Positions 1 through 3,156 of a stretch of 64,000 nt of DNA are shown here, piece after piece; positions within the stretch are counted from its first letter, which is position 1; the number at the start of each line of letters is the position of its first letter. The notes under the pieces are model-generated. The model was not told the origin of the DNA, ran no database searches, and saw nothing but the letters and a program-made list of their open reading frames with translations. Source of the DNA: Diprion similis (Eukaryota; Arthropoda; Insecta; Hymenoptera; Diprionidae). The DNA lies in assembly GCF_021155765.1 (NCBI RefSeq), contig NC_060106.1:9369501-9433500 (forward strand), read 5' to 3'. The position numbers and the translations under genes were made by a program.

Positions 1-44
1 AGTCGTTCTGACGAATATTTAATGAATACTGGAGAAATACACAC

Positions 45-3000
45 CTCTACAAGTACGTCACGAGTCAAGTCGATAGCCGTTGAAATTTGCACGTAAATAT
101 CCAAAATGTATAAAACATCTATAATGACTCTGATAGTTAGCAGATCATCAGTCATGTAACGCTTGAAGCATGCGAAGTATGGATAGAGAATTGCAGCGAT
201 CAGAACAGCGAACACAATCACGCTTTGCCAGAGTGTTAGAAATAACGTGTTGGGGGTTAAAATCCAGGGCCATTCGGTTTTTATGCAAATATCGTATCGG
301 GCGACGGCTGCTTCGGTCGCCATTATGTACATGTCAACTGTAACAGTACAATTTCGAGTCATTCCATAAGTTTGACATCTCTCAGTTTTATCACATATTT
401 CGATTGTAATCCACGCACCAGTGTCCTGCGGATTGAATTCTGGGCTTAATGGATACGTATTTATCTGACATACGGTATTGTCAGTTTTTTGCTTCTTGCG
501 AAGTTGATTTTTGAAGATTTTCAACGGCTTTCTTGGCGAGGAATAGCCAAGATTGATATCGTGCAAAGCTCTTTCTACCGCATTTTCTTGCGCTCTGAAT
601 GTTACGATTCGTTTTTTCGTGTAATCCAAGCGATCTGACACTCTGTAAAGAGATAATTTTCCTGATCATACACGATTTTTGACAACAGAAAGCTTGCGTC
701 TATCTCCTCGTTTCATCTTCACTCGTGTATAATGTTAAACTCGATAATCTTAGAACTAAAATTACGTATACAAACCTGCGATTCATTTCCACGTAAATAT
801 CGTGAAACAAATTATTGTGTGCAAATAAAGTGGCTTTGTGGACAACTTGAAGTTCGCAGGACGTCGCGGCGACAACTTGACTTTTGCATTCAATATTTAG
901 TAGCAACGCTGCATCACCGAGTATCGTACCAGCCGTCAAATTTAGTATCGAACTCTCGTTGTCATCCGACGATAAAATCTGTTCATTACGTATTCATAGA
1001 GTTTTAGTCAAAGCGTGTATGTACTATGTATGTACCTCATAAATAAACATCGATAAGCTTCCCAACTTTCAACTTTTCAACGATGCGGTTCCATAGATGA
1101 TATGGAAACAATATAGGTATACGGTAAATCGTGTGATAAAACGGTACAATTTTGCTCAGCGTCGAAATTTTCTTACGTGAATTCTATAAAAATTCACTAT
1201 TCTTGTTGTCACGTCTATGTTACGTAAACTTTCTTTTCTACCTACTGTCTTACTGCATTATTGTATTAAATACTCACACTGATATTTCCTCGAACCACAT
1301 ATATCATACGATCAATGGGGCTTCCTTTCGTGTATATAATATCACCGCAGTTGTAGTATTCATTGCGTGTTCTCATTGAGAGATCTCGCAAGTATGCCGA
1401 AGGCAGGCCACGTAGCATTACAGACTGGCGAAATAAACAGTGCAGTGCTGTTACACATGGTTTCTCGATTGGAGTCTATCAATGTCGCTCTTTTATGGTC
1501 AGTATGTAATTAGCTCATGTCGAATTTAGCACGACGTGTGATAATCAGAACGCGTTTCTTACGTCTTGCTAATCCTTGGGAAAATTATACAACGTAATAA
1601 AGTAGGAGAAAAATGAGTTTTTTTTTATAAAAATTACTCTTATGAATGCCAAATAGTAGCGGTCCAAGTAAATTTCCTTTTGCAGCGTCAACGGTAAGTC
1701 CGCAAACATTTCAGATGCACTGATTGCTTTTTTGTACTTCCAGAAAGATTTGTGAAACTCGATTACACCCTCCCGCATGTCCTTCGATACTTTAGCTTGC
1801 ACCTGAAATATAATAACTTGCTGTCGTTTACGAAACAAAACACTTTTCGTTTTCTAGTATTTTTTTCACATGAAATTATAGACTCCGACATGCGTTAAAA
1901 ATCAGGCATTTATCGGTGTGCAGTTTAAGTTAAAAAGACGAACGGTTATTACATATTACCAAAGTTTCTGTGATAAGGTGGAGCTTGTTCCGGAATTCCG
2001 TATTCCTTTTAACCGCCTCTAATATCCCGCTTGTTAAACTGCCGATAAAGGCTGCGACAAGTATCACAAATCCCGTGGCCATCATTAATAACGTATACAT
2101 TTGCTCCATGCTGTTGCGTGCCGTGATTCCGCCAAATCCAGTGCTGCTCATAGCGCACGTTACAAAGTACAGAGAGACGAGGTACCATTCCCACGGTTCG
2201 TCGGTTGTCAATTTCTTGCTACTTGATATCGTTACGATCCAGCGTTCGCCGCATACGGTGCATTGTGAAAAAAGATACCTGCGAAAATCTTGTTAGCTCT
2301 TTTTCCAATTTGTGCTTAATGACGCTAAAGTTACTCACCAGAAACAAGTGTAGGTGTGTAGAGTAACTAGAAATATTACAAGGTACGTCGCGAACGTGAC
2401 CGTGATAGCAACGTTTCCCACCATATCTGTCAATCGTGAGAAAAAATTGATGGGTCTGTACATTCGAAGTACTGGTATCATGACGGAGAGGAAGTCGACG
2501 TAAATCGGCTCATCCTCAACCGAGTGATCTGACGAAAGGAAAAGGAGTTTTATTTGTCAAGAGGCTTTTAGGGATAGTTTCGAAGACCTTAGATCGTTGG
2601 CACAAATTTCTTTCTCATACTTAATAAAAAGCGGATTGGCATTCCTATAACAACTCCCAATATGTCAAGAAATATCAGAAATATCGATCTCGCCTTAAAC
2701 TCTTTTGTGGTTCTGATATCTTCTAATCGCCAGTGTAATATCGACGAACAGACGTCGACGATATACAATACGTCTAGAAGTAACTTGATGATAAATGAGA
2801 TTCTCTGTTCTGTTTCCTGCAATAAAATCGTAACGGTTTTGGACATACAAACGCTGTTGGGTAGGTAAGAGAGATTATCAGGATACCTCTTCCACTTCAA
2901 AAAATACTTCGTACGTAGTCATCATATAGACCACTATAGTAACCAACACTAGAGACAATTCCCAGGTTTTTCCGAAGCTCAGGAAAACAAAACATTCCAA

Positions 3001-3156
3001 AGTTGAATCTATCGATACTCTAACAGGGTAATCGTCTTCTGTGTCAGTATCCTCGTCCAACTCTAGCGTGAGTGAGTCTCTCGACTTCTGATTCAGCCTC
3101 AAACCATCCCCATAAAGTTCGGTTTCCTGGGGTACTTTACCCTCCAGTAAATGCAT
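45..3156 (-). CDS. Multi-repeat CNBD-superfamily ion channel, 5' part (partial)
   Basis: Eight phase-consistent exons (3156-2915, 2853-2621, 2528-2339, 2278-1960, 1802-1638, 1475-1278, 978-776, 642-45) give about 716 codons, leaving the window at a GTGTGT donor. ATG 3156 has an in-frame TGA two codons upstream. Order: acidic N-terminus; S1 (WELSLVLVTIVVYMM); S2 (KLLLDVLYIVDVCSSI); S3; S4 with only two arginines (VLRMYRPINFF); S5; pore with SSTGFGGI (2148-2125); S6; C-linker (FADLPLTLQKEIYLDRYYLA); nucleotide-binding domain (GDIIYTKGSPIDRMIYVVRG, then TAGTILGDAALL). Exon 642-45 then adds a linker and new S1 (LWQSVIVFAVLIAAILYPYF) and S2 (VIIDVLYILDIYVQIS) helices, so a second channel unit is fused in frame. 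Known family: HCN/CNG/EAG-like channels; CNGK-type channels carry four such units in one chain. The first intron would be only 61 nt, and the exon-6 acceptor (GATAG) is the least certain. Substrate ion and ligand are not predictable from this sequence. Confidence 0.82.

What the first reader, a model, noticed from the sequence alone, without database searches (positions are those of the whole stretch)
45..978. Two channel units fused in one reading frame
The nucleotide-binding-domain exon (978-776) is spliced in phase, with a good donor and acceptor, to an exon (642-45) that carries the end of that domain, a linker and the S1-S2 helices of a second unit. No stop or start separates them. A CNBD channel with several complete units in one chain is rare; the four-unit CNGK channel is the established precedent. 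If this insect gene has two or four units, it is a pseudo-oligomeric channel whose subunits can diverge independently.
Basis: partly seen in the sequence, partly recalled or inferred. Interest (0 to 1): 0.75.

Follow-up and report, generated by a model that had tools for sequence, protein, structure and literature searches.

The report
Four-unit potassium-type channel, likely insect
One gene encodes a channel protein made of four complete channel units strung together, a design known from the sperm of sea urchins and fish, and the same genome holds three more four-unit relatives whose ion filters have lost the potassium signature.

Summary
Exon 978-776 is joined in phase to 642-45, and the gene runs off the window edge. 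With the flanking genome I built an 18-exon model (17 GT-AG introns, no frame break) encoding 2,078 residues with FOUR S1-S6/CNBD units. All four pores carry GFG or GYG, and three of four have the unusual Thr described for marine CNGK channels. The phosphate-binding arginine of cyclic-nucleotide domains is missing in all four units, though unit 3 has an Arg one residue earlier. So: a CNGK-like pseudotetrameric K+ channel, probably not gated by cGMP.

The same genome holds three more collinear four-unit genes (B, C, D). Gene B carries half of CNBD 1 and units 2-4 in one 1,637-codon frame, so there the joins need no splicing. None of the 12 pores of B-D keeps GYG/GFG. Units cluster by position across genes, so the four-unit chain is older than the duplications. 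Descent from CNGK is unresolved: no CNGK sequence was available, and the published 1~3/2~4 pairing was neither favoured nor rejected. My paper searches showed no insect CNGK.

The parts
2887..3156 (-). Exon 1 of gene A: start codon (in-frame TGA two codons upstream), N-terminus and S1 of unit 1
2621..2816 (-). Exon 2: S2-S3 of unit 1
2339..2528 (-). Exon 3: S4-S5 of unit 1
1960..2278 (-). Exon 4: pore (SSTGFGG filter) and S6 of unit 1
   Evidence: PF00520 19.6 bits (cut-off 25) and PF07885 22.1 bits (cut-off 22.5), both just below cut-off, on the frame holding this exon; pore alignment
1638..1802 (-). Exon 5: C-linker of unit 1
1278..1424 (-). Exon 6: first half of CNBD 1
   Evidence: PF00027 half-match; whole domain 42 bits
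776..978 (-). Exon 7: second half of CNBD 1; phosphate-binding arginine column holds C
643..775 (-). 133-base GT-AG intron at the unit 1/unit 2 join
45..642 (-). Exon 8: stretch after the CNBD 1 core, inter-unit linker, S1 and S2 of unit 2
1..44 (-). First 44 bases of a 66-base intron; the gene continues beyond the window through exons 9-18 (C2:9369478 down to 9364523), with the rest of unit 2 and units 3 and 4, stop TAA

Best explanation
Gene A encodes a single-chain (pseudotetrameric) channel of the CNBD superfamily: four S1-S6 units, each followed by a C-linker and a CNBD, which fold around one pore. Shown here: one open spliced frame, four units, GFG/GYG in each of the four filters. Inferred: K+ selectivity, with rectification by internal Na+ as in sea-urchin CNGK because three of four filters have Thr where most K+ channels have Val or Ile. 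Inferred: gating is not by classical cGMP/cAMP binding, because the phosphate-binding arginine column holds no Arg in any of the four CNBDs; the CNBD ring more likely responds to another signal (pH, as in zebrafish CNGK, or a partner protein or peptide), with weak voltage dependence. A role in sperm hyperpolarisation is the first guess by analogy and is untested. The four-unit plan is older than the split of this gene from three sister genes in the same genome.
For: Gene model with 17 GT-AG introns and no frame break; PF00027 above cut-off in 4 of 4 units and PF00520 above cut-off in 3 of 4; matches to solved plant, KCNH, CNG and SthK channels; filters STGFGG, QTGYGD, CIGFGD, TTGFGD; published Thr feature in three of four CNGK pores (PMC4749565, section 8 read); phosphate-binding Arg column = C, S, Y, H in units 1-4, while CNGA2 and SthK have R; three collinear four-unit paralogs (BLASTP A-B 2e-161, A-C 2e-166, A-D 3e-160); units cluster by position and grouping by gene costs 617 log units.
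Against: No expression, electrophysiology or orthologue from another species was available. Unit 1 has no PF00520 match at E 0.1 when scanned whole and its filter reads GFGG, not GFGD; unit 3 has Cys where the filter Thr normally stands, so full K+ selectivity is not certain. In the CNBD alignment an Arg stands one column before the key place in unit 3 of all four genes (A3, B3, C3, D3) and in C1 and D1, and one column after it in B1 and D4, so a shifted arginine could still serve, above all in unit 3, the cGMP-binding unit of sea-urchin CNGK. SKOR, KAT1 and hERG also lack the arginine, so its loss says what does not gate the channel, not what does. Unit 4 of gene A matches CNG alpha-2/alpha-3 best and has 9 K/R in the aligned S4 stretch, so voltage sensing there is not excluded. 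The sperm role is analogy only; no Na+/H+ exchanger hit lies near a CNBD hit, so the sea-urchin pathway is not visibly complete here.
Confidence: 0.67

Rival explanations
1. Separate shorter proteins: the units are made as one- or two-unit channels from alternative ends or starts, and the long frame is rarely used.
For: No RNA evidence was available. AATAAA occurs five times between the start and stop codons of the gene (for example C2:9369496 and 9366777), as it also may by chance in AT-rich DNA.
Against: Introns are 60-299 bases. The unit 3/unit 4 boundary lies inside exon 16, residues 1556-1935. Gene B holds half of CNBD 1 and units 2-4 in one 1,637-codon frame. Genes A-D align collinearly along four units.
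Confidence: 0.06
2. A direct, cGMP-gated CNGK orthologue working as in sea-urchin sperm.
For: Same architecture, GFG/GYG filters and the three-of-four Thr feature. Unit 3 keeps an Arg one residue before the canonical place in all four genes.
Against: No Arg in the canonical column in any of the four CNBDs of gene A, including the third, which binds cGMP in sea urchin. The FGE glutamate column reads D, V, N, L in units 1-4.
Confidence: 0.15
3. The four-unit chain arose in this animal's lineage by internal duplication, independently of CNGK.
For: The 1~3/2~4 pairing reported for CNGK (PMC7576140, passages) is not favoured: ((1,2),(3,4)) and ((1,4),(2,3)) fit as well. Unit divergence is very high. 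The papers and passages seen report no arthropod CNGK.
Against: The CNGK pairing is not rejected either (p-AU 0.35). Independent assembly of the same rare design with the same Thr pattern is less parsimonious.
Confidence: 0.2
4. A decaying or non-conducting pseudochannel.
For: Few S4 charges in unit 1 (3 K/R in the aligned stretch) and degenerate CNBDs.
Against: 2,078 codons over 18 exons are intact with canonical splice sites, and four filters keep GFG/GYG despite about 20% unit identity.
Confidence: 0.05

Closest known systems
CNGK / tetraKCNG (sea urchin ApCNGK and Sp-tetraKCNG, zebrafish DrCNGK, Ciona tetraKCNG)
   Same: Four 6TM-CNBD units in one chain; GFG/GYG filters; Thr in three of four filters, as described for marine CNGKs; CNBDs need not bind cyclic nucleotides, as in zebrafish.
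   Different: Units only about 19-24% identical; no Arg in the phosphate-binding column of any CNBD; unit 1 filter GFGG; in the papers seen CNGK is reported from marine invertebrates, fish and choanoflagellates; three sister genes without K+ filters.
Plant SKOR/GORK/KAT1, bacterial SthK, KCNH and CNG channels
   Same: Best solved-structure matches: units 1-2 SKOR/GORK/KAT1, unit 2 alone KAT1/SthK, unit 3 hERG/SthK, unit 4 CNG alpha-2/alpha-3 and hERG. SKOR, KAT1 and hERG also lack the phosphate-binding Arg.
   Different: One unit per chain; four chains assemble. CNG channels lack the GYG/GFG filter.
[quoted passage not shown]
   Same: Several channel units in one chain, low identity between units and, in dinoflagellates, partly reduced CNBDs.
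   Different: Two units, different eukaryotic lineages.

Membership tests
CNGK | Four 6TM-CNBD units in one chain | tested here: met
CNGK | GYG or GFG in each pore | tested here: met
   4 of 4 units of gene A; the fuller G(Y/F)GD form in 3 of 4, unit 1 having GFGG
CNGK | Thr instead of Val/Ile in three of four filters (marine members) | tested here: met
   T, T, I, T in units 1-4; published feature read
CNGK | Unit 1 close to unit 3, unit 2 close to unit 4 | tested here: inconclusive
   p-AU 0.35 for 13|24, 0.55 for 12|34, 0.53 for 14|23
CNGK | Groups with CNGK sequences in a tree | not testable with these tools
   No CNGK among the best 60 solved-structure matches shown; no other animal genomes held
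CNGK | cGMP gating through CNBD 3 (sea urchin; not shared by zebrafish) | tested here: inconclusive
   Canonical Arg and Glu columns of CNBD 3 hold Y and N, but an Arg stands one residue earlier; binding itself not testable
CNGK | Sperm expression | not testable with these tools
   no RNA data
CNG/HCN (classical, single unit) | One 6TM-CNBD unit per chain with an intact phosphate-binding cassette | tested here: not met

The most novel reading that the evidence does not exclude
A land insect carries a small family of four-unit CNBD channels: one K+-type (gene A) and three (B, C, D) in which all 12 filters have lost the K+ signature while the four-unit frame is kept. Together they would be a class of single-chain channels gated by something other than cyclic nucleotides and, in three genes, conducting other ions or acting as voltage- or ligand-coupled proteins without K+ conduction.
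Probability: 0.45. Interest if true: 0.85.

Novelty: new variant of a known kind. Interest (0 to 1): 0.72.

Why it matters
In the papers seen, four-unit K+ channels of this superfamily come from aquatic animals and choanoflagellates, with function shown in sperm of animals that fertilise in water. Finding four such genes in one genome that is probably a land insect's would extend the design to internal fertilisers. It gives a natural series in which each of the four subunits has diverged on its own, which a homotetramer cannot do. PMC6259924 (passages) states that CNGK units are nearly identical and show no obvious specialisation; if these genes are CNGKs, that is not a general rule, and the role of each filter and each CNBD could be tested separately.

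Tried and rejected
Two-unit gene: rejected, the flanking genome gives four. C1:17660001-17670000 (three CNBD hits): set aside, it reads as an NTE/PNPLA6-7-like esterase rather than a channel (my reading of the frames; no family search was run on it). Pairing of units 1~3 and 2~4 as proof of CNGK descent: tested, inconclusive. Sea-urchin signalling partners: the PF00999 search gave 11 places, none near a CNBD place; CatSper, sAC and guanylyl cyclases were not searched. The organism: an HCN-type CNBD from this genome matched HCN chains of several animals, which does not settle the group; one paper search for a recalled candidate sawfly gave 0 papers; the insect check with the insect odorant-receptor family did not complete. 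A tree including CNGK, and structure prediction of the spliced protein, were not done: no CNGK letters were held, and I read the predictor's stated rule as not covering joined exons or stretches fetched by place. dN/dS between paralogs was not tried (22-34% identity).

Weak points: gene models B, C and D are mine. C and D come from an aligner that I wrote, guided by the paralogs; stops carry a heavy penalty there, so their lack of stops is partly imposed. Different guide proteins gave somewhat different exons for C (23 or 25) and D (27, 28 or 32). Their start and stop exons are not settled, and S1 of unit 1 is missing from both models used. Controls: scores 1,242-2,717 in six runs on the real genes against 110-143 in eight runs on unrelated or reversed DNA and 167 and 205 for shuffled queries. 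C and D share 14 intron positions (chance mean 0.56, maximum 5 in 1,000 draws); A shares 1 with C and 2 with D, which is within chance, and B shares none.

Full report
1. What is in the window. On the minus strand, eight exons of a channel gene lie between 3156 and 45: 3156-2887, 2816-2621, 2528-2339, 2278-1960, 1802-1638, 1424-1278, 978-776 and 642-45. The ATG at 3156 is preceded two codons upstream by an in-frame TGA.

2. What lies beyond. The window is C2:9369501-9433500 of a 269-Mb assembly in 60 contigs. With three 10-kb stretches across and beyond the window edge the gene extends to C2:9364523. The model has 18 exons, 17 GT-AG introns of 60-299 bases, and 2,078 residues followed by TAA. 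The units span residues 1-497, 498-1067, 1068-1579 and 1580-2078. PF00027 is above its cut-off in 4 of 4 units (42, 42.9, 39.5 and 31.2 bits; cut-off 27.5). PF00520 is above its cut-off in 3 of 4; unit 1 has none at E 0.1. Unit 1 is nevertheless homologous: BLASTP unit 1-unit 4 E 7e-23, and a match to SKOR from about S2 to the CNBD. The unit 3/unit 4 boundary falls inside exon 16 (residues 1556-1935), so that join needs no splicing. The unit 1/unit 2 join in gene A rests on the splice 776/642, and the unit 2/unit 3 join on introns 10-12.

3. Functional residues. The filters read STGFGG, QTGYGD, CIGFGD and TTGFGD. In sea-urchin CNGK three of four pores carry a Thr that most K+ channels replace by Val or Ile; changing these to Val removed the strong rectification caused by Na+ block, and the Thr is present in seawater CNGKs except the sponge's (PMC4749565, section 8 read). 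Gene A has T, T, I, T at that place. The phosphate-binding arginine column reads C, S, Y, H in gene A and holds no Arg in any of the 16 units of genes A-D; it is Arg in CNGA2 and SthK, and not in SKOR, KAT1 or hERG. Against this, an Arg stands one column before that place in the third units of all four genes and in C1 and D1, and one column after it in B1 and D4, so a shifted arginine might still work. Sea-urchin CNGK is gated by one cGMP on CNBD 3, whereas zebrafish CNGK is gated by pH and not by cyclic nucleotides (PMC4749565, passages). I favour non-cyclic-nucleotide gating. This is inference. K/R counts in the aligned S4 stretch are 3, 5, 4 and 9 in units 1-4.

4. Three sister genes. A PF00027 search of the same genome gave 31 places; four of them lie in one 1,637-codon open frame on C1. 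With two upstream exons this is gene B, C1:467735-461282, 2,032 residues and four units. Protein searches of the genome with units 2-3 of gene A and with 1,720 residues of the gene D model pointed to two further loci, C10:5329793-5344375 (gene C) and C10:15020253-15028617 (gene D). One search gave 19 matches: 17 at loci A-D and two weak ones at other channel loci (C8, C11). One search gave 43 matches, all at loci A-D, with 27 of 39 first-look candidates scored, so a further distant relative is not excluded. Models of C and D come from a spliced aligner that I wrote. It returned gene A's window exons in a self-test; its scores were 1,242-2,717 on the real genes against 110-143 on unrelated or reversed DNA and 167 and 205 for shuffled queries. 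BLASTP of A against B, C and D gives 2e-161, 2e-166 and 3e-160 over about 1,900-2,100 aligned columns; identity in the joint alignment is 22-24%, and 34% for C and D. C and D share 14 intron positions against a chance mean of 0.56; A shares 1 with C and 2 with D, within chance; B shares none. None of the 12 pores of B-D shows GYG or GFG. In C1, D1 and D4 the pore lies next to a predicted splice site, so its exact letters are uncertain.

5. Age of the four-unit plan. In maximum-likelihood trees of the 16 units, with and without five outgroup channels, units of the same position group together: bootstrap 100 and 98 for second units, 100 and 100 for third units, 100 and 95 for fourth units, and 100 and 100 for the split separating the first units. 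Forcing units of one gene together costs 617 log units. So the four-unit chain existed before the genes split. The order among positions is unresolved: 13|24 (the CNGK pattern reported in PMC7576140, passages), 12|34 and 14|23 have p-AU 0.35, 0.55 and 0.53. The placing of the outgroups among the units has supports of 16-43, so a single origin of the units is not shown.

6. Literature. CNGK is reported from marine invertebrates, fish and choanoflagellates (PMC4749565 passages; PMC7576140 passages; PMC6259924 passages). PMC6660944 (passages and one section) treats CatSper, sNHE and sAC in arthropods; the parts I saw do not report CNGK there. PMC8835908 (passages) shows Ciona tetraKCNG along the sperm flagellum. 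PMC2572835 and PMC3481119 were seen in passages only. Searches of the open-access library listed no title, abstract or passage that I saw reporting an insect CNGK. Most of the listed papers were seen only as listings, one search listed 10 of 23, and subscription papers are mostly not covered.

7. What is not known. Expression, conductance, ligand and distribution in other species. From recall, a genome of about 270 Mb with about 14 large chromosomes would fit a pine sawfly, but no call supports this (one search found 0 papers; some searches did not complete).

Noticed in passing
L042 (C1:458501-468500), minus strand, C1:467735-461282: Gene B: a second four-unit channel gene with only two introns, its last exon a single 1,637-codon frame; none of its four filters has GYG/GFG. 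It may be a largely intron-free copy.
   Followed up: yes
L022, L032, L044, L047 (C10:5327501-5345842, plus strand): Gene C: a third four-unit relative, about 23 exons, no GYG/GFG filter in the model.
   Followed up: partly
L041, L045, L046 (C10:15018001-15031000, plus strand): Gene D: a fourth four-unit relative, about 27 exons, sharing 14 intron positions with gene C.
   Followed up: partly
third units of genes A-D: An Arg one residue before the canonical phosphate-binding place is kept in the third unit of all four genes, in the unit that binds cGMP in sea-urchin CNGK.
   Followed up: no
L013 (C11:7682483-7685722), also L012 and L036: CNBD channels that may be single-unit, with a phosphate-binding cassette that keeps its Arg (RRVAS or QRLAS); L013 shows an odd filter stretch (CSGFNG).
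   Followed up: no
window 44 to -21 (C2:9369544-9369479): The 66-base intron is a multiple of three and open in frame; retaining it would add 22 residues between S2 and S3 of unit 2, a possible splice variant.
   Followed up: no
window about 6000-4067, minus strand: A tubulin-tyrosine-ligase family gene (PF03133, 107.6 bits on window 5950-5702) appears to end about 0.9 kb upstream of the channel gene on the same strand (reading).
   Followed up: partly
G000 whole genome: Eleven Na+/H+ exchanger domain hits, none near a CNBD hit, so no sNHE-type exchanger was seen (exon-wise search, a lower bound).
   Followed up: partly
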